From contig CAMVGI010000012.1 of the NCBI GenBank assembly GCA_947166955.1, positions 1 to 12,912 on the forward strand: DNA of 12,912 nt, given 5' to 3'. Positions 1-11,214 of the stretch are shown here, piece after piece; the stretch's first letter is position 1, and each line of letters starts with the position of its first letter. The DNA is from an uncultured Clostridia bacterium (GTDB taxonomy: Bacteria > Bacillota_A > Clostridia > Oscillospirales > Oscillospiraceae). The notes below the pieces were generated by a model. That model ran no database searches and had not been told where the DNA came from. It worked only from the letters and a program-made list of their open reading frames with translations. The position numbers and the translations under genes were made by a program.

Positions 1-885
1 TGGTAACATCAATTCATCGCACGTGAGCGGCACCCGCCTGATGAATGGCATCGGAACACCGAGCGTGGTTCCTGAGATGCTCCACGTGGTTGTGGTCTCG
101 CCCTCATAGTTGCCGGCGAGGCCGTTCTTGTTGAGCGTAAGCGCAAGTGTCGCCGGGCTACTGTTTACGTCGGGGACGTTGATTGCAAGCGGCGTCGTCT
201 CATCGATCTCCACGGACGCCAGATTATCCACGGTGGAGTTGGGGTAGGTGATCGAAGCGGTCATAACTTCGGCGGTCTTATACGGGCTGCTGGAATGCGG
301 TCTAAACGCCGTCTGGTCGTTCGTTTTCGACATCATGTAGGCCGCGGCAAGGGAGTTATCGCCGTTCATGGCGGCAACCTGCTCCGTGTCCGTCGTGGGG
401 AAATGGATGGACGCTTTGTTCAGGTCGTCCGTATTTGACACCTTGAAGTAAAATTCCAGAACATCTTTTCCAGATGTAGTATTAACGCCAGTGTTGTGAC
501 TAATATCTACGTGAGCACTCTGGTAAAGGTCACAACCCGCACTGTCAACGCCAACTACGCTAAAGTTGCTTTTCGCCAAGAATGATTCGCTCAGCTCGCT
601 TGCCGCAGTCACCGTTGAAGAATCAGTATACGCTTCTTGATTGATCGGTGTAATCACTGCGGGATCATAAAGTAGGCAAGCGCCGATGACTGTGGTTTTT
701 TCAAATCCGGTCGCATGAGCAACCAACTTGAAAACAACGTCCGTCTTCTGCTCCGCATCTGCGGTGAGGCGTGTGCAAGTAAAATTCAAGCTCTTGCCAT
801 CAGCGCGCGCCGTTGGCATCGTGCAGGGCAGAACCATAATCAGCGCAAGCAACAGCGCCAGTGCCGATCTCAGTTTTTTCTTCAT
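1..885 (-). CDS. Secreted cohesin-like domain protein, C-terminus cut by window edge
   Basis: The frame is open for 295 codons from the ATG at 885 to the window edge, so the C-terminus is missing. Residues 1-28 form a signal peptide: Lys/Arg-rich start, Leu/Ala core and an A-R-A cleavage motif before Asp29. Residues ~32-190 resemble a cohesin-type beta sandwich, with a YDP..I.TP strand, an NFSVVG segment and the GKDVLEFYFKVSN strand typical of the end of cohesins. The region after ~220 looks like another beta-rich domain. A GGGAGGAAG ribosome binding site precedes the ATG, and the gene starts 21 bp after the dockerin gene stops, so it is probably the third gene of the operon. Cohesins bind dockerins on the cell surface or in cellulosomes. 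The cohesin call is by pattern only, and binding to the neighbouring dockerin is inference. Confidence 0.75.
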   Translation of the reverse strand, partial: MKKKLRSALALLLALIMVLPCTMPTARADGKSLNFTCTRLTADAEQKTDVVFKLVAHATGFEKTTVIGACLLYDPAVITPINQEAYTDSSTVTAASELSESFLAKSNFSVVGVDSAGCDLYQSAHVDISHNTGVNTTSGKDVLEFYFKVSNTDDLNKASIHFPTTDTEQVAAMNGDNSLAAAYMMSKTNDQTAFRPHSSSPYKTAEVMTASITYPNSTVDNLASVEIDETTPLAINVPDVNSSPATLALTLNKNGLAGNYEGETTTTWSISGTTLGVPMPFIRRVPLTCDELMLP

Positions 886-906
886 CTTGTGTCTTCCTCC
901 CAATAT

Positions 907-1776
907 TTACTCAACGATGGCTCCTTGATTAAGATTGCTGATCAGCAGCGACAAGTCGGATGCGTTCACCCTTCCTCCTCCGTCAAAATCTGCGTAAACT
1001 AGGTTTCCTGTCAAATCAGTGGTATTCGCATTAAAAGCACTAATCAGTAGATTCAGGTCGGTGGCGTTTATACGGTCGCTGTCATCGATATCGCCGGCAA
1101 TCAGTTGCACAGCCACGTCGCCGTCATCCGTCGCGAGATCCATCGCGTTTCTGGTATAGCTCAAAAAGCCGTGGACCTTCACTGTCACCGTATATTCTGC
1201 AATGGGTAAGTTATCAGGCAACTCGTACTTGCCTTCTTCGTTCGTTGTTACTTGTATCGGTGACCCGTTTACAGGTGTGAATGTGATAACAGCGCCATTC
1301 ATCTTATCGTCGTCGCGCCCTTGGATCGTAATCGTCCCCTCCACCTTCACGGTGTTCGCCTGCGCCGGAGTAGCTGCCTCGCTTGCGCCGTTCGCGCCGG
1401 CGTTGCGGATGACGCCGAGCGTCTTCGGCGAGGTCGTGCCGCTGCCGTCCTTGAACACGCCGCCAAGCAGCAGCTCGCAGTTCTGCGCCTTCCTCGGCGT
1501 GAACGTGAAGCTGGCCTTGACGCCGCTATCATCCGCCGCTGCCGCCTGGTTGATGTACTGGACGGTGTCTTCGTTTAATACCGTCTCGCCGTTCTGCTTC
1601 TCCACCACAAGCAGGATGTACTGGTTGCCCTCGACGAGGTCGGCGCCCGTGTAGGTGACGGTGTACTGATCGCCCGTATGGGTGATCGTCACGCCGTCCA
1701 CCTTTGCCGCCAACGCGCACACGGTCAGTGCCGCGAGCGTCAGGGCGAGGCAGAACAACAGTTTGAACCGTTTCAT
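907..1776 (-). CDS. Secreted dockerin-containing protein with Ig-like and carboxypeptidase-regulatory-like domains
   Basis: 289 residues. Residues 1-24 are a signal peptide. Residues ~26-125 form an Ig-like beta domain, followed by an Ala/Asn-rich linker (~126-143). Residues ~144-225 resemble a carboxypeptidase regulatory-like fold (KVEGTITI, then TTNEEGKYELPD and an EYTVTVKVHGF strand). The C-terminus (~227-286) is a type-I-like dockerin with two calcium-loop/helix repeats, D229-D240 and D263-D274, each followed by a DL.LLIS helix. Loop position 5, usually Asp, is Ser in the first repeat and Gly in the second; positions 10-11 are Ala-Thr and Ala-Ser. There is no catalytic domain, so this is probably a structural or adhesive partner. 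It starts 13 bp after the upstream gene stops and has a GGAGGGAG ribosome binding site. The dockerin is clear; the other domains are likely. Confidence 0.85.
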   Translation of the reverse strand: MKRFKLLFCLALTLAALTVCALAAKVDGVTITHTGDQYTVTYTGADLVEGNQYILLVVEKQNGETVLNEDTVQYINQAAAADDSGVKASFTFTPRKAQNCELLLGGVFKDGSGTTSPKTLGVIRNAGANGASEAATPAQANTVKVEGTITIQGRDDDKMNGAVITFTPVNGSPIQVTTNEEGKYELPDNLPIAEYTVTVKVHGFLSYTRNAMDLATDDGDVAVQLIAGDIDDSDRINATDLNLLISAFNANTTDLTGNLVYADFDGGGRVNASDLSLLISNLNQGAIVE

Positions 1777-1789: not shown

Positions 1790-3091
1790 TTATTTCACAA
1801 ACATGCCGTACAGAGCCAGCATGGACTGTGCCTTGTCGAGCGCGGCGGACGCCGCCTCGCTCTCCATGTTCCATTCCGCCGCGCCGCCAATGACCACCAG
1901 CGCGCGCCGCGCATCCCACTCGACCTGACGGCCCAGCGCCTCCGCCACAAAGCGGATGGGCACCGTCGTGCGGACGTAGCCCTGCGCCGAAGGGACCGTT
2001 TCGGCGGGGGCGTCCATCGTCTTTTCCATGCCGTCGATGGTATAGGTCAGGCTGCCGAGCGTCATGCGCACGGTGCGCCCGTTCCCGGTGATGGTCACCG
2101 TCTTGGTTGCGCCGTCCCAGTCCACCGCCGCGCCGAGACGCTCCGCCACGAAGCGCACGGGCACGAAGGTCCTGTCGTTTCGGATGTAGGCGGTCACGTC
2201 CGGCTCGCCGGGGTAGATGGCGACCACACCGCCGCCCGCCACCGCCGCGTTGCTGCCCAGCGGCAGAAGGACGGCGCTTTGCAGCAGCTCGTCCGCGGTG
2301 GGGTTCGCCGGGTCGGCGGGCTTCGGCTCCGGCTTTTGCTCAGGCGTCTGCGTCGGCTTCTGCTCGGGCGTTTCGGTCGTCGACGGTTGCGTCGCCGCCC
2401 CCGGCTTTGTCAGAGACGCCTTCGGCGGGTCGCCGGGCAGGTCGATCGTCACGGTATCCGCGCCGGGCAGGTCGATCGTCACACGCAGCGGCGCGGCGGC
2501 TCCCGCGTTCAGCACCATGCCCCCCTCGGGCAAATAGTCGCGGCTCGGCGTTCCGCCGTCCGCGGTCGCCAGCTTTATGACTGGCGCGGTGCCGCCCGTC
2601 TGTTTGAAGCGGAATGTGAAAGCCAAAACGCCACTCTCGCCCGCGACCGCGACGCCCTTCTGCTTTGCGAGGCCGTCACTCGCAGTGCTCTGTCCCGGCG
2701 TCACATAGCCAGTGAAGTCAATCAGGCCCTTTTCGCTGTCAAGCTCCGTGCCAACGGTGGACATCCAGCCCGTATCGGTCTTTTTCGCGAAATCAGAAAA
2801 CTCTCCCGCCGCCGTGCCGTCTGCCTTCACGGGGGTCACGGTGTCCGCGTCGTACCACAGGGCAAACTGGAAGGCGTTGAACATTGCGCTCTTTATGGTC
2901 AGGTCCACGGTGAACACGCCGGTCGCGTCCGGCTCGCTTGCCGTGAAGTCCGCCTCGGCAGTCGTGCCGGACGTGTCCTCCGCGCGCGCCGGAAGTGCCA
3001 AGCCAATCGTCAGCACCGCAGCCAACAATAGGGAAAACGCCTTGTGCCTCCCCGGATCAGTGCCGGTAGCATATCGCTTTAGGCTTCTCAT
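1790..3091 (-). CDS. Secreted cohesin-like / copper amine oxidase N-terminal-like domain protein
   Basis: 433 residues from the ATG at 3091. AGGAGG lies 12 bp upstream of this start. In-frame ATGs at 3133 and 3124 have no ribosome binding site and would put charged residues ahead of the signal peptide. Residues 1-37 are the signal peptide, ending A-R-A before Glu-Asp. Residues ~46-190 resemble a cohesin-type domain (FQFALWYDADTVTPVKADG, later GVLAFTFRFKQTGG). Then comes a Pro/Thr/Lys linker with TPEQKP repeats (~245-275). Residues ~300-410 hold two copies of the copper amine oxidase N-terminal-like motif (RTFVPVRFVAERLGAAVDWD and VPIRFVAEALGRQVEWD), a domain common on Firmicutes surface proteins. 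It is the first gene of the three-gene operon and lies directly downstream of the proposed invertible promoter. Its partner or ligand is unknown. Confidence 0.85.
   Translation of the reverse strand: MRSLKRYATGTDPGRHKAFSLLLAAVLTIGLALPARAEDTSGTTAEADFTASEPDATGVFTVDLTIKSAMFNAFQFALWYDADTVTPVKADGTAAGEFSDFAKKTDTGWMSTVGTELDSEKGLIDFTGYVTPGQSTASDGLAKQKGVAVAGESGVLAFTFRFKQTGGTAPVIKLATADGGTPSRDYLPEGGMVLNAGAAAPLRVTIDLPGADTVTIDLPGDPPKASLTKPGAATQPSTTETPEQKPTQTPEQKPEPKPADPANPTADELLQSAVLLPLGSNAAVAGGGVVAIYPGEPDVTAYIRNDRTFVPVRFVAERLGAAVDWDGATKTVTITGNGRTVRMTLGSLTYTIDGMEKTMDAPAETVPSAQGYVRTTVPIRFVAEALGRQVEWDARRALVVIGGAAEWNMESEAASAALDKAQSMLALYGMFVK
2431..2482. repeat. 22-bp direct repeat, 30-bp period, inside the linker-coding region
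   Basis: Bases 2431-2452 and 2461-2482 are identical. The repeat encodes a duplicated TIDLPG segment between the cohesin-like domain and the Pro/Thr linker. It is a likely site for slippage or unequal recombination that changes linker length in frame, since the 30-bp period is ten codons. Confidence 0.85.
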
Positions 3092-3136
3092 TACGTCACT
3101 ATTCCTCCTCTTTTCATACCGCATACACCCCATAAC

Positions 3137-3162
3137 GGTGCGTAAAGTACACTTTATGCCCC
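3137..3162. repeat. Putative serine-recombinase crossover site A
   Basis: A 26-bp imperfect palindrome: left arm GGTGCGTAAAGT, core AC at 3149-3150, right arm ACTTTATGCCCC. The arms match at 10 of 12 positions. This size and two-arm, 2-bp-core layout is that of invertase sites such as hix. Bases 3144-3162 are the exact inverse complement of 3252-3270 (19 bp). The site sits 46 bp upstream of the surface-operon start codon. Confidence 0.75.
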
Positions 3163-3265
3163 AACTTGTACTTGCAAAATGCGAACGTGCTTGATATACT
3201 AAAAGATGGTCTAATATGAGATTTTACCGCATGCCAAAGTTTCCGAGAATCGGGGCATAAAGTGT
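3149..3265. other. Putative invertible promoter segment (phase switch), OFF orientation
   Basis: The segment lies between the crossover cores of site A (3149-3150) and site B (3264-3265), which are inverted relative to each other. It contains a strong promoter reading rightwards, away from the surface operon that starts at 3091. I found only a weak leftward candidate (TTGGCA, 15 bp, TATTAG). Inversion maps position x to 6414-x, which would turn the strong promoter towards the operon and give a leader of about 115 nt. The segment also contains the last codons and the stop of the adjacent serine recombinase. The geometry is seen directly; switching is inferred. Confidence 0.7.
3172..3200 (+). 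promoter_or_regulatory. Sigma-A-type promoter inside the invertible segment
   Basis: -35 TTGCAA (3172-3177), 17-bp spacer, extended -10 TGA-TATACT (TATACT at 3195-3200). As sequenced it fires rightwards into the 3' end of the recombinase on the opposite strand, giving an antisense transcript. After inversion it would fire into the cohesin/dockerin operon. Confidence 0.7.
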
Positions 3266-3871
3266 ACTTTCTGCCCTATCTGTATCGCTCACCCAACGTA
3301 AAAAAGTTTTATGGCTCACACCAAGCTGACGTGCTGCTGCCCGCGCTGATAAGGTTCCCAACTTCCATTCTGTCCTAACGGCTTCATAGTCAGGCGGTTT
3401 TTCCATTGGCTGTCGCCCAAAACGAACGCCATTCGCCTTCGCCGCCGCGATGCCTTCTGCCTGCCGCTGGCGGATGAACTCGCGTTCCGTCTGCGCGACA
3501 TAGCTGAGTAGTTGGAGCACGATGTCTGCAATCAGCGTTCCCGTGAGGTCGCGTCCCTGCCGCGTGTCGAGCAGCGGCATATCCAAAACGACAATATCGG
3601 CGCGCTTTTCCTTTGTGATGACGCGCCATTGCTCCAAAATCTCATCGTAGTTGCGGCCAAGCCGGTCGATGCTCTTGACAAAAAGGGTATCGCCCGGCTT
3701 CAGCTTCTTGAGAAGTCTCTGCCAGCCGGGGCGTTTGAAGTCCTTGCCGCTTTGCTTGTCCATGAAGGTATTACGCTCTGGGACGCCCACCTCACGCATG
3801 GCAATACGTTGCCGATCTTCGTTCTGATCCTTGCTGGAAACTCGAATATAGCCATAGATTTCGTTATTCAT
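3224..3871 (-). CDS. Small serine recombinase (resolvase/DNA invertase family)
   Basis: 215 residues from the ATG at 3871, chosen because GGAGG lies 7 bp upstream; earlier in-frame starts lack this. The catalytic domain begins YGYIRVSS, with R10 and nucleophile S12. SIDRLGRN (R70, R73) is the conserved active-site arginine motif. A long E-helix follows (QTEREFIRQRQAEGIAAAKANG), then a Hin-like DNA-binding HTH at ~160-195 (ARQLGVSHKTFLRWV). It would make a 2-bp staggered cut at paired sites. The last ~15 residues extend past the usual end of the family and are encoded by crossover site B and the invertible DNA. In the inverted state residues 208-215 would be replaced by 12 different residues ending at 3200-3202. 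Its own promoter lies at 3932-3960. It is probably the enzyme of the adjacent switch. Confidence 0.93.
   Translation of the reverse strand: MNNEIYGYIRVSSKDQNEDRQRIAMREVGVPERNTFMDKQSGKDFKRPGWQRLLKKLKPGDTLFVKSIDRLGRNYDEILEQWRVITKEKRADIVVLDMPLLDTRQGRDLTGTLIADIVLQLLSYVAQTEREFIRQRQAEGIAAAKANGVRFGRQPMEKPPDYEAVRTEWKLGTLSARAAARQLGVSHKTFLRWVSDTDRAESTLYAPILGNFGMR
3252..3277. repeat. Putative serine-recombinase crossover site B
   Basis: A 26-bp imperfect palindrome: left arm GGGGCATAAAGT, core GT at 3264-3265, right arm ACTTTCTGCCCT. The arms match at 10 of 12 positions. It is inverted relative to site A and lies inside the 3' end of the recombinase gene, where it encodes AESTLYAP. Confidence 0.75.
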
Positions 3872-3931
3872 GCGATTTCCTCCAATCTTTGATGCAGAAA
3901 TTATAGAGGAAACCTTGGTATGTAGTTTTAT

Positions 3932-3960
3932 ATTATAGTCAATCCGTTGAGTATAGTCAA
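3932..3960 (-). promoter_or_regulatory. Promoter of the serine recombinase
   Basis: Read on the minus strand: -35 TTGACT (3960-3955), exactly 17 bp, -10 TATAAT (3937-3932), near-consensus sigma-A. It gives a leader of about 54 nt to the ATG at 3871. An 18-bp tandem repeat overlies both boxes. Confidence 0.8.
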
Positions 3961-3969
3961 TGGATTGAG
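3934..3969. repeat. Two 18-bp tandem repeats over the recombinase promoter (possible operator)
   Basis: Units 3934-3951 and 3952-3969 both read TATAGTCAAT, then three differing bases, then TTGAG (15 of 18 identical). They cover the -10 and -35 of the recombinase promoter and lie just upstream of the divergent XRE gene at 4010. That placement suits an operator for this small regulator. TCAATCC and GGATTGA within the pair also form an inverted repeat. Confidence 0.55.
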
Positions 3970-4009
3970 CATGATAGGATATAGCAAATCGCTTCAAGAG
4001 GTTTGCTGT

Positions 4010-4219
4010 ATGATCTCCTATGAGCCGTTCTGGAACACGCTAAACAAGAGGGATATGTCCACCTATGACCTCATTTACAGGCATGGGTTATCCGCGAATA
4101 CGGTTCACCGCATGAAAGGTGGGAAGGACATCACGACAAAAACGCTGAACGAGCTATGCTTTATTCTGAAGTGTTCCGTGTCCGACATATTGGAATATCG
4201 GGAAACCGACGAGGACTGA
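4010..4219 (+). CDS. Small XRE/Cro-type HTH transcriptional regulator
   Basis: 69 residues. The ATG at 4010 is chosen over an upstream in-frame ATG (3947) because AAGAGG lies 8 bp before it and the protein then begins where the family does (MISYEPFWNTLNKRDMSTYD). The whole protein is one five-helix HTH: helix 2 near STYDLIYRHG, recognition helix SANTVHRMKGG, then TTKTLNELCFILKCSVSDILEY, a hallmark of the short YozG-like Cro/CI group. It is divergent from the serine recombinase and shares a control region that carries tandem repeats. It could therefore control recombinase levels, which is inference. About 165 bp downstream, up to the end of the helicase gene, shows no gene and only a weak hairpin near 4319. 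Confidence 0.85.
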   Translation: MISYEPFWNTLNKRDMSTYDLIYRHGLSANTVHRMKGGKDITTKTLNELCFILKCSVSDILEYRETDED

Positions 4220-4385
4220 AAACCTAAAATCCATATTGACCAACCGCAGCGAAATTGTCTTTGAATTCCGCATCATCGCTTCGTTCCTTACGTCCTCCAG
4301 CTTCCGCCCCCTACCGCAGCGTTGTTGGCAACGGCTTGAGTGATGTGATCAGAATAATCTCTCCGTTTCGCGATTCTGAGACATG

Positions 4386-5894
4386 TCAAAACCTCCATTC
4401 TTTGTTCGCCTTTGCCGCGAGGTGTGAGTTTCTGGGTGAAGGCCTGGTCCGAAGGGCCCGCTCGACTGCTTCCTCCGTACCGAACAGGATCACGCGTTTT
4501 TTTGCGCGCGATATCGCCGTATAAAAGAGGTTTCGGTTGAGCATATTGCCCATCTGCTCCTCGGACAGCGGGATCAGCACGGTATCATAGCCGCTCCCCT
4601 GTGCCTTGTGTACGGTCATGGCGTAGGCGAGCTCCAACGGCAGCCGGCTGTTCAGCTCCTCCGCAGACCAACTCGCACGGCTTCCGTTTTGAAGGGATAC
4701 GTCGCATCGCGGATGATCTTCGGTTCCGCGCAGGCACAGCACGCCGGCGTCCCCGTTGAAGCAGCCGCGCGCGGCATCGTTCACGTTCACCATGACACGG
4801 TCACCGTCACGCAGTTGTGTTTCCCCGTATGGAATCGCTCTCACGCCGTCTCGCAGCGGATTGAGCTTCTCCCGTATGAGGAGACTGAGTTCCTCCGCAC
4901 CCAGCGGAACGCCTCTCCGCCGCGGCGTGATCACGCAGATGCTCTCACCGGTGCGATATCGGCGGACCGCCTCTTCCACCAGTTTCGCACGGATCTCGTC
5001 GTCCGTTCCCGCCTGGATCTGAAAATTCTCGTCTTTCAGCAAACCGGACACGTCTGCAATCTCCGAAAAACGCGCCACGTTGTGGTACAATGCCGAAGCG
5101 GCGTCTTTCTGCCGGTAGAGCGTCCGAAGCTCCTGGTTGGGCACGCCGAGTTCCAACAGGTCTGCCAGAACGTTGCCCGCGCCGATGCCCTGCAGCTGGT
5201 TCCTGTCGCCCAGCAGCACGATCCGGCAGTCGTCCGGCGCCGCCTTGAGAAGCTCGGCAAAAACACGTAGCGGAATCATGCCCGCCTCGTCCACGACGAC
5301 CAGCTTCTTTCCCTTCAGCGCATCCGGCTCCTGCGCGCCGCCGCTGTGGAGCATGTGCAGCGCCTTGTGCAGCGTACTGGCGGGATAGCCCGTCGCCTCG
5401 CATAGGTTGCGTGCGGCCTTGCCTGTCGGCGCGCAAAGGGCGAGCTCCGTGCCCGGGTCGATGCCGAGCGTATCGATCAGCGCGCAGGCTGTTGCGCTCT
5501 TGCCGCTGCCGGCGCCGCCGATGATCAGCGTCAGATCATTCTCCATCGCCTTCAGAACAGCCGCACGCTGATCTCCGTCCAGGACGACGTTCCCCGACCG
5601 GATCGTCTCCGGCAGCGGCTCTGCGTCACGCGGCGTCTTCCGCAGGCGTTCGGCAAGTTTTTTCGCTGCGAGCGTCTCGTCCTCCCAAATCTCCTTTAGA
5701 TAGACGGCGTCGCCCTCCAAAACCAAGCGTCCGGCTTTGACAAGCGTTTCCAGCTCCGCCGTGAAACCCTCCCGGCCGCTCCCCGGGTGCTCTGCCGAAT
5801 ACAGGCAGAGCACCGCGTCCCAACGCATATAACTGTGCCCGTTCCGGCAGTACTTATCAAGAATGTCAGGAATCGTTGCGCTGTCATGCGTCAT
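4386..5894 (-). CDS. RecD2-like SF1 DNA helicase, short form
   Basis: 502 residues. ATPase/helicase motifs are intact and in order: Walker A GGAGSGKS (126-133), motif Ia APTGKAA (155-161), Walker B VVVDEAGM (199-206), motif III GDRNQLQGIGAG (229-240), LYRQ (259-262), the UvrD-C2-type AMTVHKAQGSGYD (425-436) and FYTAISRAKKRVIL (457-470). The N-terminal ~100 residues resemble the winged-helix part of RecD2. RecD2 proteins are usually ~720-800 residues, so the N-terminal OB/HhH part is absent and this is a compact form rather than housekeeping RecD2. It should unwind DNA 5'-3' using ATP. The start overlaps the stop of the upstream HTH gene by 11 bp, with a G-rich ribosome binding site, implying translational coupling. 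Its neighbours suggest it works with a putative nuclease. Confidence 0.88.
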   Translation of the reverse strand: MTHDSATIPDILDKYCRNGHSYMRWDAVLCLYSAEHPGSGREGFTAELETLVKAGRLVLEGDAVYLKEIWEDETLAAKKLAERLRKTPRDAEPLPETIRSGNVVLDGDQRAAVLKAMENDLTLIIGGAGSGKSATACALIDTLGIDPGTELALCAPTGKAARNLCEATGYPASTLHKALHMLHSGGAQEPDALKGKKLVVVDEAGMIPLRVFAELLKAAPDDCRIVLLGDRNQLQGIGAGNVLADLLELGVPNQELRTLYRQKDAASALYHNVARFSEIADVSGLLKDENFQIQAGTDDEIRAKLVEEAVRRYRTGESICVITPRRRGVPLGAEELSLLIREKLNPLRDGVRAIPYGETQLRDGDRVMVNVNDAARGCFNGDAGVLCLRGTEDHPRCDVSLQNGSRASWSAEELNSRLPLELAYAMTVHKAQGSGYDTVLIPLSEEQMGNMLNRNLFYTAISRAKKRVILFGTEEAVERALRTRPSPRNSHLAAKANKEWRF

Positions 5895-6372
5895 TCAGAT
5901 CCCCCGCCTGCACCGCGGCATACTTTTCCAGAAACTCCTCCGGCGACATCCCCTCATACTTGCTGATGCGCCGAATACCGGCCTTCGTTTTCGCCTGTGC
6001 GCACATTTCCTGAGCGCACTGCCGCGACACGCCGAGTCTTCCGGCAAGCTGCTCAAACGTAAGTCCATTCGCTGCGCGATAGTTGCCGAGCGCGCTGTTC
6101 GCGCCGCGTTTGCTCTCGCGCTGCGGATGGTCCCCGTCATCGAGCTGAGCGGTCGAGTGAATCTCGAAAAGCTGGTCGACCGTTACCCCCAAGCGGTCGG
6201 CGACGGCAATCAGACTGGGAACGCAGGACATGTTCAGCAGCTTGTTGGGATTACGCCAGCAGCTGCTCGGGCTTCCGCCGAAAAGCCGCTGGATCTCGGC
6301 GTTTTTCACGCGTCTTTTTCTGCGATAATACTCCACGCCGGAAATGACTCTGTTCGTTTCCCTCTTTGCCAT
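5884..6372 (-). CDS. HTH protein of the nuclease-helicase operon
   Basis: 162 residues. Two DNA-binding-like halves are visible. Residues ~10-72 resemble an XRE domain ending in the typical SLIAVADRLGVTVDQLFEIH. Residues ~94-120 hold a second HTH (LTFEQLAGRLGVSRQCAQEM). The C-terminal tail (MSPEEFLEKYAAV) is helical. It starts 4 bp after the upstream gene stops, with AAGGAGG inside the end of that gene, and overlaps the helicase start by 11 bp, so the three are made as one unit. The ending of the first domain is very like that of the HTH in the upstream fusion protein, suggesting the two descend from one regulator or bind related sites. I do not recognise a named family; a DNA-targeting or autoregulatory role is inference. 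Confidence 0.75.
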   Translation of the reverse strand: MAKRETNRVISGVEYYRRKRRVKNAEIQRLFGGSPSSCWRNPNKLLNMSCVPSLIAVADRLGVTVDQLFEIHSTAQLDDGDHPQRESKRGANSALGNYRAANGLTFEQLAGRLGVSRQCAQEMCAQAKTKAGIRRISKYEGMSPEEFLEKYAAVQAGDLNDA

Positions 6373-6376
6373 CCTT

Positions 6377-7105
6377 TCAGTCCTCCTTCCGATGCATCAA
6401 ATAGCTCTCCGGTTCGGGATCAAACAGGGAAACCACTTCCGCCGCCGAGTAGACGACATACTCATAGGTTTCCGCTTTCCGATCCAGCGCGTAAATGCGA
6501 AACAGCTCATAGTTTGCGCCGCTCTCGGCCATCTGACGCGCCTTGCGCAGCTCGCCGCCACTCATGTGGAACGGTTCGAGCGGGTCCTGCGACGTCGTGG
6601 CCTTGACTTCGATGTATTTCGGCTGTCCATTCGAGGTGACGGAAATCACGTCGTAACCGTTGCGGCGGTTCTTCGCGGGTTCGGTGGATACGCGGCATTC
6701 GTAGCCGGTTCCCGCAAGGCGTTCACGCTCGAAATCGGCAACGAGCATCTCGCCGAGCTCTCCGGTTTCAATCTGTGACGCGGAGCGACATTTGTGTTTT
6801 GCGGAATGAACCGCATGCACACAGTTTGCACTCGTCTTGACGGCGCTCAGATCGTTGCGGACGAGCTCGTCCATCGTCACGCCGTAAAGCTCGGCAAGCT
6901 CCTTGATTACGCAAAACCGAGCGTTATGCCCATACTCCAGCCGCCTGAGTGTGTGTACGCAGGCGTGCGTCAGATTCGCAAGCTGGGAAAAAGAGTACCC
7001 GTGTGCCTGACGCAGAATGTAATAGGCGTTATCCGCCGCGTCGCTTTTGCGTCCGGGCCAGGGGACGGGCGTTTCGTTCAGCCGATTCGTGTCAAAGTTT
7101 ACCAT
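6377..7105 (-). CDS. XRE HTH fused to DUF3883-like putative PD-(D/E)XK nuclease
   Basis: 242 residues. Residues ~27-83 are an XRE-type HTH (FSQLANLTHACVHTLRRLEYG, then VIKELAELYGVTMDELVRN). After a linker, residues ~113-225 match the DUF3883/NO VEIN C-terminal pattern: TGELGE (E116, E119), NGYDVISV (D152), YIEVKATT (E166, K168), FHMSGGEL and YELFRIY. The order E, D, ExK is the PD-(D/E)XK nuclease signature, and all acidic residues are present, so it could be active. DUF3883 domains are common in restriction and defence proteins, usually next to helicases. It is the first gene of the operon, after a long structured leader. The ribosome binding site is weak (AAGGA at 12 bp). Fusion of this domain to an XRE HTH is unusual in my knowledge. 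It could instead be a regulator with an inactive fold. Confidence 0.8.
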   Translation of the reverse strand: MVNFDTNRLNETPVPWPGRKSDAADNAYYILRQAHGYSFSQLANLTHACVHTLRRLEYGHNARFCVIKELAELYGVTMDELVRNDLSAVKTSANCVHAVHSAKHKCRSASQIETGELGEMLVADFERERLAGTGYECRVSTEPAKNRRNGYDVISVTSNGQPKYIEVKATTSQDPLEPFHMSGGELRKARQMAESGANYELFRIYALDRKAETYEYVVYSAAEVVSLFDPEPESYLMHRKED

Positions 7106-7123
7106 TGTCTTCTACCATCCTTT

Positions 7124-7140
7124 TTTGTTGTTACAACAAA
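7124..7140. promoter_or_regulatory. 17-bp perfect dyad just upstream of the HTH-DUF3883 gene
   Basis: TTTGTTGT-T-ACAACAAA, 8-bp arms around one base. It lies between the terminator-like hairpin and the weak ribosome binding site of the gene starting at 7105. It could be an operator for an HTH protein of the operon or a second RNA hairpin that extends the terminator. Confidence 0.5.
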
Positions 7141-7337
7141 GAAGCGCCGTGCAGGCTCAAAACCTGCACGACGCTCCTGATGGTATCAGGATACGAGAGA
7201 TTGCCCCTTGCATCGCGTGCCGAAAAAGGATATACTACGGCTGTCGATGCGGGGAATCCCGTCATGCCGGTGGTCTGTTCACCTGCGTGGGTCATAGCGA
7301 GCTGCAACTCGCTATGACTGTCGGCTTTTCTGTTGTT
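7128..7337 (-). ncRNA. Candidate ~210-nt structured RNA / attenuator leader, class not recognised
   Basis: A strong promoter ends about 7 bp upstream, and the RNA then shows ordered stems. P1 is 11 perfect bp (7318-7308 with 7301-7291, 6-nt loop). Then come GGTG/CACC (7283-7280 with 7272-7269), CGGG/CCCG (7261-7258 with 7253-7250), and GCATCG/CGATGC (7250-7245 with 7215-7210) enclosing GCCG/CGGC. CCTGAT/ATCAGG (7190-7185 with 7181-7176) and the terminator-like hairpin at 7178-7140 close the series. There is no convincing ORF. It could be a free small RNA, an attenuator controlling the HTH-nuclease operon, or both. I could not match it to a known riboswitch. Confidence 0.6.
7140..7178 (-). terminator. 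Terminator-like hairpin in the nuclease-helicase operon leader
   Basis: On the minus strand, 16 bp can pair around a TTTTGAG loop (7156-7162), including the core AGCGTCGTGCAGG with CCTGCACGGCGCT. Two of the pairs are G-U and form only in the minus-strand RNA. TTCTTTGTTGTT follows, an imperfect U-rich tract. The hairpin lies before the first gene, so it is either the end of a small RNA or an attenuator. Confidence 0.6.
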
Positions 7338-7343
7338 ATTGGT

Positions 7344-7372
7344 ATTATATCATATGTGGGAACACACGTCAA
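7344..7372 (-). promoter_or_regulatory. Promoter of the structured leader and nuclease-helicase operon
   Basis: Read on the minus strand: -35 TTGACG (7372-7367), 17-bp spacer, -10 TATAAT (7349-7344). The spacer contains the dyad operator candidate at 7354-7366. Transcription should start near 7337, about 230 nt before the first gene. Confidence 0.8.
7354..7366. promoter_or_regulatory. Operator candidate O1, dyad TGTGGGAACACA
   Basis: TGTG/CACA arms around GGAA, located between the -35 and -10 of the minus-strand promoter, where a bound protein would block transcription. It matches O2 at 7425-7438 in 12 of 14 positions when aligned from 7354. Confidence 0.6.
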
Positions 7373-7424
7373 GCGATATTATTCGATAAAAGTGTACAAG
7401 GAATAAGAGCGCTATTTGTGCGAA

Positions 7425-7438
7425 ATGTGGGCACACAT
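7425..7438. promoter_or_regulatory. Operator candidate O2, dyad ATGTGGGCACACAT
   Basis: Arms ATGTG/CACAT around GGCA, ending 5 bp before the -35 of the ribbon-helix-helix gene promoter. It is nearly identical to O1, 71 bp away, so one regulator probably acts on both divergent promoters. Confidence 0.6.
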
Positions 7439-7442
7439 AGTC

Positions 7443-7473
7443 TTGACTATTTCCACAATCGATATATTATAAT
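7443..7473 (+). promoter_or_regulatory. Promoter of the ribbon-helix-helix gene
   Basis: -35 TTGACT at 7443-7448. The -10 is TATTAT (7465-7470, 16-bp spacer) or TATAAT (7468-7473, 19-bp spacer). Transcription starts near 7477, just before the AAGGAGG ribosome binding site. Confidence 0.7.
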
Positions 7474-7503
7474 AGTATAGATTTTATCAAGGAGGGGAAT
7501 GTT

Positions 7504-7710
7504 GTGAGTCAAACCCCCGCGCAGCTGGCTGCGAGCAAAAAATATCATCAGGAAAAACTTGATGAGCTAAAGCTCCGCGTCCCCAAAGGCAACAAGGATC
7601 GCATTCAGGAGCACGCCAAAGCACAGGGCGAATCCACGAATGCGTTTATTTACCGCGCCGTGAACGAGACCATCGAGCGGGATCAGGCCAAGCGCCTCAA
7701 GGTAGATTGA
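7504..7710 (+). CDS. Arc-like ribbon-helix-helix DNA-binding protein
   Basis: 68 residues from a GTG at 7504, with AAGGAGGGG ending 7 bp upstream. The ATG at 7499 leads to a stop after one codon and is not used. The N-terminus is Ala/Lys-rich (residues 1-20), followed by the RHH core: a beta strand LDELKLRVPKG, helix A KDRIQEHAKAQG, the S-T-N turn and helix B AFIYRAVNETIERDQ. RHH proteins dimerise and insert the strand into the major groove, commonly at tandem or dyad sites, and often autoregulate. The dyad beside its own -35 and its copy in the divergent promoter make it the best candidate to bind both. There is no toxin partner gene next to it, so a toxin-antitoxin role is not supported. 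Confidence 0.85.
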   Translation: MSQTPAQLAASKKYHQEKLDELKLRVPKGNKDRIQEHAKAQGESTNAFIYRAVNETIERDQAKRLKVD

Positions 7711-7814
7711 CTGTAAGCCCAAAAAGGCTGGCCCTTTCGCAGTCTGACGGTTACTGATTCCAGATTATAGGTTTTCTAAAACGCAGTTATCGCTTAGTGA
7801 TTGTATTACGCAAA

Positions 7815-7832
7815 AATATTTTTAAAAATATT
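7815..7832. repeat. 18-bp perfect A/T palindrome upstream of promoter A
   Basis: AATATTTTT followed by AAAAATATT, a perfect 9+9 palindrome ending 9 bp before the -35 box. It could be an operator, an UP-like element or a bent-DNA site. The 100 bp before it (7711-7814) hold nothing that I can assign. Confidence 0.6.
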
Positions 7833-7841
7833 GAAAATCAC

Positions 7842-7869
7842 TTGACAAATGATACATCTGTGCTATACT
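7842..7869 (+). promoter_or_regulatory. Promoter A, upstream of the long structured leader
   Basis: -35 TTGACA (7842-7847), 16-bp spacer, -10 TATACT (7864-7869). The expected start is near 7876. It is similar in sequence to promoter B at 9323-9351. Confidence 0.8.
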
Positions 7870-7889
7870 AATAATATCAGAAGGAAGAT
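7860..7889 (+). repeat. Promoter/leader cassette, copy A (copy B at 9342-9371)
   Basis: The 30 bases from the end of the spacer to AAGGAAGAT are 26/30 identical to 9342-9371. The similarity covers the -10 box, the start and the first leader bases. In both copies a hairpin begins right at or after AAGGAAGAT. The AT-rich DNA before the -35 is also related (AAAAATAYTGAAAAT in both). Confidence 0.8.
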
Positions 7890-8397
7890 AAGCGTACGCT
7901 GAGTTGGCGTGCGCTTTTGTTTTGCAATTTAGCGTCTGTACTTCCCCATGTTTGGTAATAGGCGCACATCGAGCAAGAAAGGAGAAGTCGAGCTCGCACA
8001 GAGAAGTGTGTGGCAAATCAAGCCGCACACGTAATAAGGCTGCGAATCGGTCTGCCATGAGTGGGTGTGCAATGCGCAACCATGGTCATGACAACGTGGG
8101 ACGTAAGACAAGGAAGTCGAAGGCTGACTTATCTAACGTCACGTTGCAGAGCACGTCTTAGGCGTGGCTGAGCAACGCGCAAGCGAAGATGCGCACCCGC
8201 GCATTGGAACGTCACCCCGCCGATCAGCAGCACACCGTATGGCGGCAGTCCCATGTATTATCTCTTGAAAAGGGGAAATAAACGGGGATTTGCCGCCACA
8301 ACCATAGCCAGATGGCAAAGTACCAGCACGGGGCAGCTGGTCTATCAAAAAGCTCTCAAGTTCTTAACGTGTTCTAGCGAAGGAGGTGACTGCAAGT
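7876..8397 (+). ncRNA. Candidate ~520-nt structured RNA / leader upstream of tyrosine recombinase
   Basis: No gene is supported here, but the plus-strand RNA folds repeatedly. After the early terminator come GTGTGTGGC/GCCGCACAC (8006-8014 with 8022-8030, loop AAATCAA) and CATGA/TCATG (8056-8060 with 8086-8090) around an 8-bp inner stem. AACGTG and ACGT (8093-8104) pair with ACGTCACGTT (8136-8145) around AAGTC/GACTT. CACGTC/GGCGTG and ATGCGC/GCGCAT (8189-8194 with 8199-8204) follow, then CCGCC/GGCGG (8218-8222 with 8241-8245) and CCAGC/GCTGG. TTCCCC near 7943 could pair with GGGGAA near 8271 to close the domain. The non-Watson-Crick pairs that I checked are G-U on the plus strand, supporting that direction. 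It does not resemble a known intron or riboswitch to me. Confidence 0.6.
7891..7923 (+). terminator. Early terminator hairpin after promoter A
   Basis: AGCGTACGC (7891-7899) pairs with GCGTGCGCT (7907-7915) around TGAGTTG; the single imperfect pair is a G-U in the plus-strand RNA. TTTGTTTT follows. It begins only ~15 nt after the expected transcript start, so most transcripts would stop at about 48 nt unless termination is prevented. Confidence 0.65.
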
Positions 8398-9264
8398 ATG
8401 CCAAAACATCATAGCATCGAAAACCAAGCAACTCAAAAACTGCGCTCAATGGCAGCGTTCGGCACATCGAAGCACCTGGACAAGTTGGCGAATGACGGAA
8501 AGCCTGCACAGGATAAGATTTACAGCTACTCGACGATGGACAATTATAGACAAGCAGGCAAAGGCTTTGTGCAATGGGCAAAGTCCGAATACGGTTGCAG
8601 AGACTTAGAAGACGCCCGATTGTATGTTGGAGATTACTTACAGCATCGTATCGATGAAGGCAAAAGCGCATGGACCGTTTGCCGTGACGCTGCGGCACTA
8701 GGCAAACTGTACCAGACGAAGAGTACAAGCTTTGGTGTTAAACTCCCCACTCGCTCACGAGCGAACGTGACCCAGCACCGCACCAATGCAGAAAAAGGGC
8801 ACTTTTCCGAGTCCAAAAACGCTGATCTTGTCACGCTTTGCAAGGCAACAGGCTTGCGGCGGCATGAAATTCCTCCGGTGACCGCCGACAAGGTAATGCG
8901 GGACAAGAACGGGCATACCGTGCTGACAGGCATCGTGGGCAAAGGCGGCAAGGTGCGTGTCGTGCCAGTGCTGCCGCAGTACAAGAACCAAATTAAGGAG
9001 ATGGCAGAGCGCGCCGCTGCAGATAATCGTCCGTTGGTGGAGCACATCCCAAAATACGCTCCGTGTCACGTTTACCGGGCTGAGTATGCGCGCAAGCTGT
9101 ATGCGCTCCATGCCCGCGACGTGAAAACAATCGACCGCGCCGAGAGATACGACGGACGCCGCGATCTCGCCGGGCAAAGCTTCGACAAAGCCGCAATGTC
9201 AATCGTCACTGCCGCTCTTGGTCACAATAGAGATGATATCGTCACGAACTACATCGGACACTGA
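8398..9264 (+). CDS. Tyrosine recombinase (first of two)
   Basis: 288 residues from the ATG at 8398, with AGGAGGTG 10-11 bp upstream; an in-frame GTG at 8386 lies inside that site and is rejected. Residues ~40-108 form a SAM-like core-binding domain (STMDNYRQAGKGFVQWAKSEYG, SAWTVCRDAAALGKLYQ). The catalytic domain carries R154 in TGLRRHEI, Lys in GKGGKVRVVP (182/185), H224-V-Y-R227, H276 in ALGHNRDD and Y285 near the end, a full R-K-HxxR-H-Y set. It is unlike the canonical integrase at 11391: there is no arm-binding N-domain, HVYRAEYARKLYALHA replaces the usual box II, and the nucleophile is three residues from the C-terminus. It follows a ~520-nt structured leader. It may act in element resolution or excision. 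Confidence 0.85.
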   Translation: MPKHHSIENQATQKLRSMAAFGTSKHLDKLANDGKPAQDKIYSYSTMDNYRQAGKGFVQWAKSEYGCRDLEDARLYVGDYLQHRIDEGKSAWTVCRDAAALGKLYQTKSTSFGVKLPTRSRANVTQHRTNAEKGHFSESKNADLVTLCKATGLRRHEIPPVTADKVMRDKNGHTVLTGIVGKGGKVRVVPVLPQYKNQIKEMAERAAADNRPLVEHIPKYAPCHVYRAEYARKLYALHARDVKTIDRAERYDGRRDLAGQSFDKAAMSIVTAALGHNRDDIVTNYIGH

Positions 9265-9322
9265 CCGGCTTTTTCATCACCCAACCAAATCCAAAAATAC
9301 TGAAAATTTTTGAAATAATTGC

Positions 9323-9351
9323 TTGACTTTTTTTGGAAACCGTGCTACACT
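9323..9351 (+). promoter_or_regulatory. Promoter B, upstream of the excisionase/ATPase module
   Basis: -35 TTGACT (9323-9328), 17-bp spacer, -10 TACACT (9346-9351), with AT-rich DNA before it. The start is near 9358. It is a sequence relative of promoter A. Confidence 0.75.
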
Positions 9352-9366
9352 AACATTATCATAAGG

Positions 9367-9416
9367 AAGATGTCACTCTGGGTGTGTGTAAATGTGCGCC
9401 CAGAGTGACATCTTTT
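9367..9416 (+). terminator. Early hairpin after promoter B
   Basis: A 16-bp perfect stem (9367-9382 with 9399-9414) with a 16-nt loop, followed by TTTTGT. It begins ~9 nt after the expected start. An ORF of 12 codons (ATG at 9370, stop TGA at 9406-9408) lies within the hairpin, but AAGGA is only a few bases before the ATG, so a leader peptide is uncertain. Confidence 0.65.
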
Positions 9417-9425
9417 GTGGATTTA

Positions 9426-9469
9426 CCGCGATTTCACTTTTTTTCTGTGAAATCGCGGTTTTTTGTTTT
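9426..9469 (+). terminator. Strong rho-independent terminator
   Basis: CCGCGATTTCAC (9426-9437) pairs perfectly with GTGAAATCGCGG (9447-9458), then TTTTTTGTTTT. Together with promoter B this defines a discrete ~110-nt two-hairpin RNA, or a two-stage attenuator for the genes starting at 9740. Confidence 0.85.
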
Positions 9470-9470
9470 C

Positions 9471-9739
9471 GTGAGATTCACGCTTGCTTGCTAACGGCTC
9501 GGTCAGCTGCCAGCCGAGGAAAAACATTGATTGCACACAATAGTCTCATTGTTATCGCGGACGTACTTTTGCTTATGCCCAGGGCGCGGGGCACACTTCC
9601 AAGTGGGAAGACAGCGCCACGGAAAACGGCAGCGCCCCATCCACCTGCGTTGATGCGACAGTGCGCATCCCCGGCGCCGCAGGTGCATACGGCCTAATCG
9701 TTCCGCCAGCCGGGGCGGATGATGAAGGAGGTTTTCGCA
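9471..9739 (+). ncRNA. Structured leader before the excisionase gene
   Basis: No gene is supported. Stems include CTCGG/CCGAG (9498-9502 with 9514-9518), GGGCGC/GCGCCC (9582-9587 with 9632-9637) enclosing CTTCC/GGAAG (9596-9600 with 9606-9610), and CACCTGCG/CGCAGGTG (9642-9649 with 9678-9685) enclosing GATGCG/CGCATC (9652-9657 with 9664-9669). CCGCC/GGCGG (9703-9707 with 9714-9718) ends just before the ribosome binding site. It has the same position and design as the leader of the tyrosine recombinase module. Confidence 0.5.
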
Positions 9740-9979
9740 ATGAACCATTTGCGTACAATCAAGGTTGCCGCAGCGTTTTTCAAGCGTGTCGATCCGCAGA
9801 CTGCCCTCACCGAATACGCGATTCGCACCCTGCTCCGCACCGGCAAGGTGCCCTGCGTCCGGGTCGGGAAAAAGTACCTTGTCACCATCGAAGCGCTGGA
9901 GGCGTACCTGGCGCCCGACCAGCCTACCGAGCGGAATGGATCCGCCGGCAGCGCGAGAAAGGAGTGGCGTATAAAGTGA
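9740..9979 (+). CDS. Excisionase-like MerR-type HTH protein
   Basis: 79 residues. The ATG at 9740 is chosen over 9719 because AAGGAGG (9725-9731) lies 8 bp before it. The fold is the short winged HTH of excisionases: IKVAAAFFKRVDP.TALTEYAIRTLLRTGKVPCVRVGKKYLVTIEALEAYL, with the wing around CVRVGKKYLV. A basic tail follows. Proteins of this type bend DNA near integrase arm sites to favour excision, or act as regulators of mobile elements. The gene overlaps the AAA ATPase start by 4 bp (GTGA), so the two are translated together. The arm-type repeats at 12462-12542 and the integrase at 11391 are the likely partners, but the pairing is inferred from context. Confidence 0.85.
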   Translation: MNHLRTIKVAAAFFKRVDPQTALTEYAIRTLLRTGKVPCVRVGKKYLVTIEALEAYLAPDQPTERNGSAGSARKEWRIK

Positions 9980-11037
9980 ATGGAAGTACACCCAATAATT
10001 TGCATGATTGCTTTAAGCCGCTTTCGCAATTCTCGGAGGAGGAGGCGACCTGGCTCATTCCCGGCTGGCTGCCAGAAGGGCAGATCACGCTCCTCGCCGC
10101 TGACGGCGGAATCGGCAAAACATCACTCTGGTGCCACATCATCGCTGCAATCAGTTCTGGATCGCGCTGTGTACTTGATCCGCCGGATTACACTCGCCCG
10201 CCTGCGGAGGTATCCTTCCTGACCACCGAGGATAGCGTCAGGAAAAAACTTGTGCGGAAGCTGCGCCTCGCTGGGGCGTGTATGGATAATGTGTATGCTC
10301 CCGATTTCTCCTCCGATAAGAGCGGTTTGCTTCGGACGCTGAAGTTTGGCTCGCCGGTGATGGAAAGCTTTGTCCGGGAAAGTATGCATAAGTTGTATGT
10401 TTTTGATCCTATACAGAGTTTTATCCCGCCGAGCCTGAACATGGGCAGCCGCAACGCCATGCGCGACTGCCTTGCGCCACTTATCTCGCTCGGCGAGGAG
10501 ACTGGCGCGACATTTTTCATTATTGCGCACACGAACAAGCGCAAGGGAGCGTCCGGACGTGACAGAGTCGCAGACAGCGCGGATTTCTGGGATATTTCCC
10601 GCTCCGTCCTGATGGCCGGTTACGCGGATGAGCAGGGCGTCCGCTATCTCAGTAATGAGAAAAACAATTACTCCCGGCTGCAGGAAACGCTGCTGTTCAC
10701 CGTCGACGAGGACGGTCAGATTGTGGAGAAGGGCCGGAGCTGGAAGCGGGACCGCGAGTTCCAGCAGGATGCGTTGATGGGCATTTCCGCTCCAAAGCGT
10801 GAGGACTGCAAAAACTGGCTCCTCGCGCAGCTGGAAGCGTCCGACGGGAGAATGCCGTCTGTGGAGCTGGACGACGCGGCAAAGGCTGCGGGCTTTACCA
10901 GTAAGACAGTCCGCAATGCCAAGGATGCGCTCAAAAACGAAGGGATGCTTCTGTATCGGCAGACCTTCACTGAGGGGAGAAAGCAATGGTACACTGAACT
11001 GTTGCAGTCTCCCGATGAAGAACCGTTTCCTTTATGA
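9976..11037 (+). CDS. RepA-like AAA ATPase (AAA_25 type) with C-terminal winged helix
   Basis: 353 residues from a GTG at 9976, with AAGGAG 11 bp upstream and a 4-bp overlap with the preceding stop; a GTG at 9964 sits on the ribosome binding site. Walker A is ADGGIGKTS (42-50), Walker B KLYVFDPIQSF with D144, and FFIIAHTNKRKG (180-191) is the sensor strand. The motifs and order are those of the RecA-fold RepA/AAA_25 helicase-like ATPases on plasmids and integrative elements. The C-terminal part (REDCKNWLLAQL, FTSKTVRNAKDALKNEGML) is a winged helix that probably binds DNA. It likely drives replication or partition of the excised element. In relatives that I recall, the C-terminus runs further into a Lys-Asp-Tyr-rich tail; here it stops at EEPFPL. 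Confidence 0.88.
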   Translation: MNGSTPNNLHDCFKPLSQFSEEEATWLIPGWLPEGQITLLAADGGIGKTSLWCHIIAAISSGSRCVLDPPDYTRPPAEVSFLTTEDSVRKKLVRKLRLAGACMDNVYAPDFSSDKSGLLRTLKFGSPVMESFVRESMHKLYVFDPIQSFIPPSLNMGSRNAMRDCLAPLISLGEETGATFFIIAHTNKRKGASGRDRVADSADFWDISRSVLMAGYADEQGVRYLSNEKNNYSRLQETLLFTVDEDGQIVEKGRSWKRDREFQQDALMGISAPKREDCKNWLLAQLEASDGRMPSVELDDAAKAAGFTSKTVRNAKDALKNEGMLLYRQTFTEGRKQWYTELLQSPDEEPFPL

Positions 11038-11091
11038 AGCGGGCGTCAGCCCACTCCCAGACCATTTTATCAGTCTTCTCCAAAAGGGCTT

Positions 11092-11214
11092 ATGACTATA
11101 AAGAGCTTTAACTATAAGGATTTCATCATTTGCCCGCAGGGACAAGTGACAAGTGACCTCCCGTTTATCGGCTGCGTCATTTGCCCCTGTGGGCAGGTGG
11201 TTCACGCCGCATGA
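11092..11214 (+). CDS. Possible 40-residue small protein or detached ATPase tail
   Basis: ATG at 11092, stop TGA at 11212-11214. The product starts MTIKSFNYKDF and contains an internal near-repeat, IICPQGQV then VICPCGQV, with four cysteines. The ribosome binding site is poor (AAGGG only 3 bp before the ATG). The repeat exists at DNA level too, so the ORF may be a by-product of the DNA repeat. The NYKDF stretch recalls tails found at the C-terminus of related ATPases, so it may be a tail separated by a frameshift. Confidence 0.3.
   Translation: MTIKSFNYKDFIICPQGQVTSDLPFIGCVICPCGQVVHAA

What the first reader, a model, noticed from the sequence alone, without database searches (positions are those of the whole stretch)
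3137..3277. Serine-recombinase-type invertible promoter controlling a cohesin/dockerin surface operon
Two 26-bp sites lie in inverted orientation. Each has 12-bp arms (10/12 symmetrical) around a 2-bp core (AC/GT), and they share 19 perfect bp. They flank a promoter with 17-bp spacing and extended -10 (3172-3200) that faces away from the operon starting at 3091. A complete small serine recombinase gene adjoins the segment. Every part expected of a phase-variation switch is present: inverted sites with an asymmetric core, a promoter between them, an invertase beside them, and surface proteins downstream. The sequenced state would be OFF. I know of no description of this switch on a cohesin/dockerin locus.
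Basis: partly seen in the sequence, partly recalled or inferred. Interest (0 to 1): 0.93.

Follow-up and report, generated by a model that had tools for sequence, protein, structure and literature searches.

The report
Flippable promoter beside its own recombinase
A 117-base stretch of DNA carrying a predicted promoter lies between two inverted repeats, the likely recombination sites, at the end of a small serine recombinase gene, and would likely flip to switch a cohesin/dockerin operon on and off; pairs of related bacteria carry such a stretch in opposite orientations.

Summary
Two 26-bp inverted sites (3137-3162, 3252-3277) with matching AC/GT cores flank a promoter-like sequence (3172-3200) pointing away from a cohesin-like/dockerin operon, so the sequenced state should be OFF. 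Correction: the recombinase gene (3224-3871) does not merely adjoin the segment; it crosses the right site, so a flip would change its last residues (215 aa now, 219 aa modelled).

Comparative evidence is new. By a strict rule, 65 of 140 recombinase loci (window included) carry such a site pair at the gene's 3' end, against 3 of 140 shuffles and 2 of 138 upstream stretches. Core-to-core distances follow a 10.45-bp period. Between relatives close to each other the segment sits inverted in collinear flanks: L076/L143 match 99% inverted versus 58% native, L117/L196 97% versus 30%. Predicted promoters point away from the next gene in 43 of 65, towards it in 15. Downstream genes are diverse: adhesin-like, glycosyltransferase, helicase/defence-like, NRPS.

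So this is very likely one of a widespread family of self-contained invertible-promoter cassettes in Oscillospiraceae and other Clostridia. The flip was not seen for this window: no genome or reads are held. The mechanism class is known; my searches found no description of this family.

The parts
3149..3265 (.). Predicted invertible segment, core to core (cores included), 117 bp
   Evidence: Inverted sites; cores AC/GT; core spacing 115 fits the family's 10.45-bp phasing; segments at the same position are inverted between relatives. The window's own segment did not align to any relative's in the minus orientation
3137..3162 (+). Left recombination site, 26 bp, core AC at 3149-3150
3252..3277 (-). 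Right recombination site, 26 bp, core GT at 3264-3265; lies inside the recombinase reading frame
3172..3200 (+). Predicted promoter TTGCAA-17-TATACT with extended -10, facing the recombinase tail and away from the operon (OFF)
   Evidence: similar promoters at a similar place in most strict relatives
3224..3871 (-). Small serine recombinase, 215 aa, whose stop codon lies inside the segment; the modelled flipped form is 219 aa with a different tail
   Evidence: PF00239 E 2.3e-31; best-scoring solved relatives Sin/Tn552 and gamma-delta resolvase; in-silico flip
3932..3960 (-). Predicted promoter of the recombinase, TTGACT-17-TATAAT
   Evidence: consensus match only
1790..3091 (-). First gene of the operon: hydrophobic start that looks like a signal peptide (by eye), type II cohesin-like domain, copper-amine-oxidase-N-type domain
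   Evidence: PF07833 E 3.4e-31; AlphaFold model matched to type II cohesins, Foldseek E 1.8e-7
907..1776 (-). Second gene: carboxypeptidase-regulatory-like domain plus type I dockerin
   Evidence: PF00404 E 6.1e-9, PF13620 E 4.1e-8
1..903 (-). Third ORF, runs off the window; no family found
4010..4219 (+). Divergent small HTH regulator (HTH_26), found upstream in only 5 of 151 loci (window included), so probably not part of the core cassette

Best explanation
A 117-bp segment bearing a predicted promoter lies between two inverted 26-bp sites, one of them inside the 3' end of a small serine recombinase gene, and is likely flipped by that recombinase so that a cohesin/dockerin operon would alternate between OFF (as sequenced) and ON. 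Inferred mechanism: recombinase dimers bind the two sites, pair them across a DNA loop of about 11 helical turns, cut at the 2-bp AC/GT core and rejoin after rotation. In the ON state the promoter would read the operon on the minus strand, its -10 element ending 122 nt before the ATG. In the OFF state it would fire backwards into the recombinase gene, which may also oppose read-through from the recombinase promoter into the operon. Each flip would also swap the recombinase's last residues. Shown: the arrangement, and inversion of segments of this kind between relatives. Inferred: the flip, transcription and phenotype of this locus.
For: (1) Perfect 19-bp inverted pair with matching asymmetric cores. 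(2) An open recombinase frame with PF00239 that aligns to gamma-delta resolvase over the RVS and DRLGR stretches (their catalytic role is recalled). (3) Family test: strict site pair in 65 of 140 loci (window included), 3 of 140 dinucleotide shuffles, 2 of 138 upstream and 4 of 119 downstream control stretches. A simpler test without the motif: inverted-repeat score 12 or more in 60 of 125, 1 of 125 shuffles, 10 of 123 upstream, 4 of 89 downstream. (4) Cores equal in inverted register in 81 of 89 permissive pairs (biased upward because pairs were chosen by inverted similarity). (5) Core-to-core distance phased at 10.45 bp, R 0.75 over 35 clusters (0.66 at 10.5 bp over all 65), 0 of 2000 jittered sets as strong; the window's 115 lies on the main peak. 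(6) Inverted segments between collinear flanks: L076/L143 99% inverted against 58% native with gene body 591 of 593; L117/L196 97% against 30%; L193/L196 87% against 20%. (7) One promoter direction stands out in 58 of 65 segments; extended -10 in 51 of 65. (8) No promoter match in the 60 nt before the operon ATG; the modelled flip places the segment promoter in sense. (9) The first two operon genes occur together in two other genomes without the recombinase in the fetched 7.0 and 9.0 kb, each with a promoter-like sequence directly upstream (promoters by eye).
Against: No second copy of this locus in either orientation was found, so its own inversion is unseen. No terminator-like site lies between the recombinase and the operon, so read-through from the recombinase promoter could make OFF leaky. 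The promoter is a consensus match only, and in 5 of the 65 strict relatives half or more of the shuffles of the segment score as high (L068, L153, L155, L180, L204). 75 of 140 related loci failed the strict rule. Two of the eight scored pairs matched better in native orientation (expected if both are in the same state). A weaker sense promoter-like match (TTCTCG-17-TAAAAT) also exists in the OFF orientation. Homologues of the first operon gene are many (142 proteins) but their surroundings were seen in three genomes only.
Confidence: 0.86

Rival explanations
1. The segment is a dead or locked relic: sites and recombinase belong to the family, but this copy no longer flips and the operon is permanently OFF or driven by read-through.
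For: No alternative orientation of this locus was found. Some relatives look damaged: L001 has an in-frame stop inside the match and cores that read AC and GT in inverted register (by eye).
Against: In the window the cores match, 19 bp of the two sites are identical, and the recombinase frame is open across the aligned region.
Confidence: 0.1
2. The recombinase is a transposon resolvase and the repeats are parts of its res site, with no role in gene expression.
For: Best-scoring solved structures by sequence are Sin/Tn552 and gamma-delta resolvases; the window's right half carries mobile-element-like genes; NCBIfam gives weak below-cut-off matches of the recombinase to XisF and IS607.
Against: The sites are inverted rather than direct, lie at the 3' end, enclose a promoter, and such segments are inverted between relatives. 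No transposase family reached its cut-off among the window proteins scanned (10, 10; not every ORF was scanned).
Confidence: 0.02
3. The switch flips, but what matters is the recombinase: promoter and tail swap tune the recombinase itself, and the operon is mainly transcribed by read-through from the recombinase promoter.
For: Recombinase and operon are co-directional with no terminator-like site between; in 25 of 65 strict loci the recombinase frame crosses the core by at least 3 nt.
Against: In 40 of 65 strict loci the stop precedes or meets the core, and in the window no promoter match lies in the 60 nt before the operon ATG.
Confidence: 0.1

Closest known systems
Serine DNA invertases Hin, Gin, Cin, Pin (recalled)
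   Same: Small serine recombinase; roughly 26-bp dyad sites with a 2-bp core in inverted orientation; recombinase gene in or beside the segment
   Different: Hin's segment is about 1 kb and contains the whole hin gene and an enhancer bound by Fis (recalled); here it is 117 bp and holds only the gene's tail. An enhancer was not looked for
Bacteroides Mpi and its invertible promoters (passages of PMC5903667; NCBIfam NF009949)
   Same: Serine recombinase flipping promoter segments, surface polysaccharide loci among them
   Different: One Mpi serves at least thirteen regions; here a recombinase gene sits at each site pair. The window protein scores 58 bits against Mpi's cut-off of 272
Clostridioides difficile RecV-type invertible switches (passages of PMC5903667 and PMC11868660)
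   Same: Clostridia; inversion of DNA in front of genes giving ON/OFF
   Different: RecV is a tyrosine-type recombinase that serves several loci
Cellulosome cohesin/dockerin systems
   Same: Type II cohesin-like fold and a type I dockerin in one operon
   Different: No glycoside hydrolase family matched among the 10 window proteins scanned; the cohesin-like protein carries a copper-amine-oxidase-N-type domain; the operon runs off the window

Membership tests
Invertible-promoter switch (inverton) | Promoter between inverted repeats | tested here: met
   (promoter by consensus only)
Invertible-promoter switch (inverton) | Both orientations occur for this locus | not testable with these tools
   No genome or reads held; 19-nt site absent from viral contigs
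Invertible-promoter switch (inverton) | Both orientations occur in related loci | tested here: met
   12 pairs given, 8 scored, 6 match better inverted, up to 99%; 25 pairs flagged, not all independent
Small serine recombinase / invertase | Resolvase catalytic domain | tested here: met
   PF00239 E 2.3e-31, whole domain matched
Small serine recombinase / invertase | C-terminal HTH DNA-binding domain | tested here: inconclusive
   HTH_50 and HTH_23 below their cut-offs; the alignment to gamma-delta resolvase runs through to residue 196
Small serine recombinase / invertase | Dyad sites with identical asymmetric 2-bp cores in inverted register | tested here: met
Hin/Gin subfamily | Fis-bound recombinational enhancer | not tested
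   Not searched for
Mpi equivalog | NCBIfam NF009949 score at or above 272 bits | tested here: not met
   58 bits
Tn3/Tn552-type resolvase | Site pairs in direct orientation | tested here: not met
   Sites are inverted and enclose a promoter
Cellulosome | Cohesin module | tested here: met
   Foldseek to type II cohesins E 1.8e-7, target TM mostly about 0.6; by sequence profile only weakly, E 0.0019; no Pfam cohesin match
Cellulosome | Dockerin-bearing glycoside hydrolases and a multi-cohesin scaffoldin | tested here: not met
   None among the 10 window proteins scanned; genes beyond the window edge unseen

The most novel reading that the evidence does not exclude
A plug-in switch: a self-contained invertase-plus-promoter cassette of about 0.8 kb that has been placed in front of unrelated operons across gut Oscillospiraceae and other Clostridia (scaffold-type proteins here; adhesin-like proteins, sugar transferases, helicase- or methyltransferase-type defence genes and NRPS elsewhere). 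It pairs its sites by helical phasing, rewrites the recombinase's own C-terminus with each flip, and in the OFF state aims its promoter back at the recombinase as a built-in brake on further flipping.
Probability: 0.35. Interest if true: 0.8.

Novelty: new variant of a known kind. Interest (0 to 1): 0.64.

Why it matters
One inverton survey of a gut community reports few invertons in Clostridia-like Firmicutes_A, a median of 3 per genome (PMC11892184, passages). A compact one-recombinase-one-promoter cassette in these bacteria would give them a common way to make scaffold, adhesin, defence and natural-product genes all-or-none within a population. DNA matching the window's 2900-4000, in the listed places mostly the recombinase gene, occurs in 142 of 400 genomes of one family, and one genome has seven matches to the recombinase protein, some partial. 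The consensus site and the roughly 10.5-bp spacing rule make such switches findable, and their states countable, in existing metagenomes.

Tried and rejected
Searching the window's own genome: none held. Exact site search in viral contigs: 0 matches. Whether switches in one genome use different cores to avoid crosstalk: 3 of 15 same-genome pairs share a core against 27% of all pairs, not distinguishable (permissive pairs with equal cores). Whether the divergent HTH regulator is part of the cassette: found in 5 of 151 loci, window included, so probably not. Transposon resolvase and cellulosome readings: set aside on the features in the membership test. Repeats of the tRNA region (12601-12700) as an attachment site: none printed within the window at 14, 16 or 20 nt. 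The permissive site rule (89 of 140) was dropped for counts because shuffles reach it in 21 of 140, upstream stretches in 24 of 138 and downstream ones in 13 of 119. Four of the twelve pairs given to could not be scored, because L008 and L028 are too short downstream for the site table. Orientation calls left 7 of 65 loci ambiguous. Pfam and PADLOC scans of 67 first downstream genes used loci picked by an earlier rule, so they are not counted for the strict set.

Full report
OBSERVATION. The inverted pair is real: 3144-3162 and 3252-3270, 19 bp identical, 89 nt apart. As 26-bp sites (3137-3162, 3252-3277) each has arms matching in 10 of 12 positions (by eye) around cores AC at 3149-3150 and GT at 3264-3265. 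Twenty mononucleotide shuffles of the region reached at most 11 against 19 observed. The promoter-like TTGCAA-17-TATACT with extended -10 lies at 3172-3200 on the + strand, pointing away from the operon on the - strand. Over 2900-4250 such matches are not above chance, but none of 30 shuffles of the segment reached its score.

The recombinase gene (3224-3871, PF00239) runs through the right site and stops 41 nt past its core. Flipping the segment in a script gives a 219-aa protein instead of 215 aa, with a different last stretch. In 25 of 65 strict loci (window included) the frame crosses the core by at least 3 nt.

THE FAMILY. With loci from the genome search and viral contigs there were 153 distinct recombinase copies, window included, 140 with enough downstream sequence. 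A strict rule (inverted-repeat score 9 or more, motif at least 14 of 20, equal cores, cores 80-230 apart) finds a site pair in 65 of 140, against 3 of 140 dinucleotide shuffles, 2 of 138 upstream and 4 of 119 downstream stretches. Without the motif, inverted repeats scoring 12 or more occur in 60 of 125, against 1 of 125 shuffles, 10 of 123 upstream and 4 of 89 downstream stretches. The site consensus over the 89 permissive pairs is about GG-N4-AAAAAGT-NN-ACYTTTT-N3-CC. Near-duplicates remain in these counts; at 80% nucleotide identity the 65 fall into 35 clusters. The other 75 of 140 loci have no strict pair; some may keep diverged sites, others none.

HELICAL PHASING. Over the 35 clusters, core-to-core distances are 95-96 (6), 105-106 (2), 114-118 (17), 127-128 (3) and 135-136 (3), with single outliers at 84, 101, 110 and 179. 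The best period is 10.45 bp, R 0.75; 0 of 2000 jittered sets were as strong; without the main peak 18 clusters still give R 0.67 at 10.5 bp; all 65 give 0.66. The window's 115 is on the main peak. I read this as the two sites needing to face the same side of a short DNA loop (inference).

INVERSION BETWEEN RELATIVES. A blastn of all regions flagged 25 pairs whose gene body aligns directly while a downstream stretch aligns in reverse. Some are not independent, and L014/L051 and L025/L066 align far downstream of the usual place. Of 12 pairs re-tested with core coordinates, 8 could be scored: 6 match better inverted, 2 better native. The clearest are L076/L143 (segment 95 of 96 inverted, 63 of 108 native; gene body 591 of 593; 196 of 200 beyond the far site) and L117/L196 (104 of 107 inverted, 32 of 107 native; body 93%, flank 92%). 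For L117/L196 the printed alignment breaks at the cores. This shows that the class inverts in nature. It does not show it for the window, whose own segment aligned in reverse to none of them.

PROMOTERS AND STATE. In 58 of 65 strict segments one promoter direction stands out by a score of at least 1: 43 OFF, 15 ON; 7 are ambiguous. The usual form is a TTGCAA-like -35, a 17-bp spacer and an extended -10 (51 of 65), the -35 usually starting about 21 bp from the core. In 5 of 65 (L068, L153, L155, L180, L204) half or more of the shuffles score as high. The window is OFF. Modelled ON, its -10 ends 122 nt before the operon ATG; in the 60 nt before that ATG no promoter match is found.

WHAT IS SWITCHED. 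In the window: a protein with a type II cohesin-like domain (AlphaFold mean pLDDT 86, pTM 0.52; Foldseek 3ghp E 1.8e-7, 1qzn target TM 0.65) and a copper-amine-oxidase-N-type domain, a dockerin protein (PF00404) and a third ORF with no family found. Surface location is inferred. Homologues of the first gene were found in 2 of 400, 2 of 394 and 1 of 11 genomes, three distinct genomes in all. In two of them (L222, 7.0 kb; L223, 9.0 kb) the dockerin gene follows, no recombinase match is present at E 1e-3, and a promoter-like sequence sits just upstream (by eye). In the third (L224, 4.1 kb) only the first gene matches, weakly (24% identity), again without the recombinase. So the operon exists elsewhere without the switch; the sample is small and this is suggestive only.

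OTHER CARGO. Per-locus Pfam of 30 first downstream genes, picked by me from the strict loci, long ones cut to 1000 aa, gave a family for 22 at E 1e-5: PP2C phosphatase, HerA/DUF87, helicase with HA repeats, NRPS (L055, L154), glycosyl and sugar transferases (L049, L061), large proteins with a pilin-type N-methylation motif (L041, L059), List_Bact repeats, SHIRT, NPCBM, NAGPA, a symporter, Band 7, Hsp70 and others. L002 has a type II methyltransferase. Cargo varies while the cassette stays, hence the plug-in reading. No test for a common mobile carrier was made.

CAVEATS. The recombinase has a promoter-like sequence at 3960-3932 and reads towards the operon with no terminator-like site between, so OFF may leak. 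Backward firing of the segment promoter in OFF could oppose this; that is inference. Catalytic residues are named from recall on the alignment. The source organism of the window is unknown.

LITERATURE. Searches for dockerin or cohesin with phase variation each list one paper, a review on surface proteins (PMC3796261, listing and abstract start only). Searches on invertible promoters, serine recombinases, invertons, PhaseFinder and Firmicutes, Clostridi-, Oscillospir-, Ruminococcaceae or Lachnospiraceae list no paper that by title or abstract start describes this cassette; one search listed 20 of 69 papers and 20 of 21. I saw passages of PMC11892184 (12 of 22 places), PMC5903667 (5 of 5) and PMC11868660 (12 of 17). 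The library lacks most subscription journals, and the PhaseFinder paper itself (Jiang et al., cited) was not read, so prior description cannot be excluded.

VERDICT. Very likely an invertible promoter controlling a cohesin/dockerin operon; a member of a widespread cassette family that my searches did not find described; a new variant of a known kind.

Noticed in passing
window 4386-12452 and 12622-12801: RecD2-like helicase, an AAA_25 protein, two tyrosine integrases and, beyond the second, tRNA-Val and tRNA-Glu: the right part looks like an integrated mobile element. Whether the switch and operon travel with it is open.
   Followed up: partly
L001 / L081, sites at 602-621 and 709-728 from the recombinase start: Cores read AC and GT in inverted register (by eye), so they do not match for inversion; the promoter points ON and the recombinase frame has an early stop: perhaps a switch locked ON.
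   Followed up: no
L002, L003, L004, L006, L008 and L009, just beyond the second site: A terminator-like hairpin lies between the switch and the next gene (a type II methyltransferase in L002), seen by eye and cut off in L008 and L009; it might be an attenuator or a guard against read-through.
   Followed up: no
L055 and L154: NRPS genes directly downstream of the switch, suggesting phase-variable peptide synthesis in Clostridia.
   Followed up: no
L018: The gene just beyond the switch is an IS605 TnpB-type protein, possibly an insertion between switch and original cargo.
   Followed up: no
G004 (L013, L103, L109): One genome has seven matches to the recombinase at E 1e-40 or better, some partial or with a stop; three of them have a site pair by the permissive rule, two (L103, L109) by the strict one.
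   Followed up: partly
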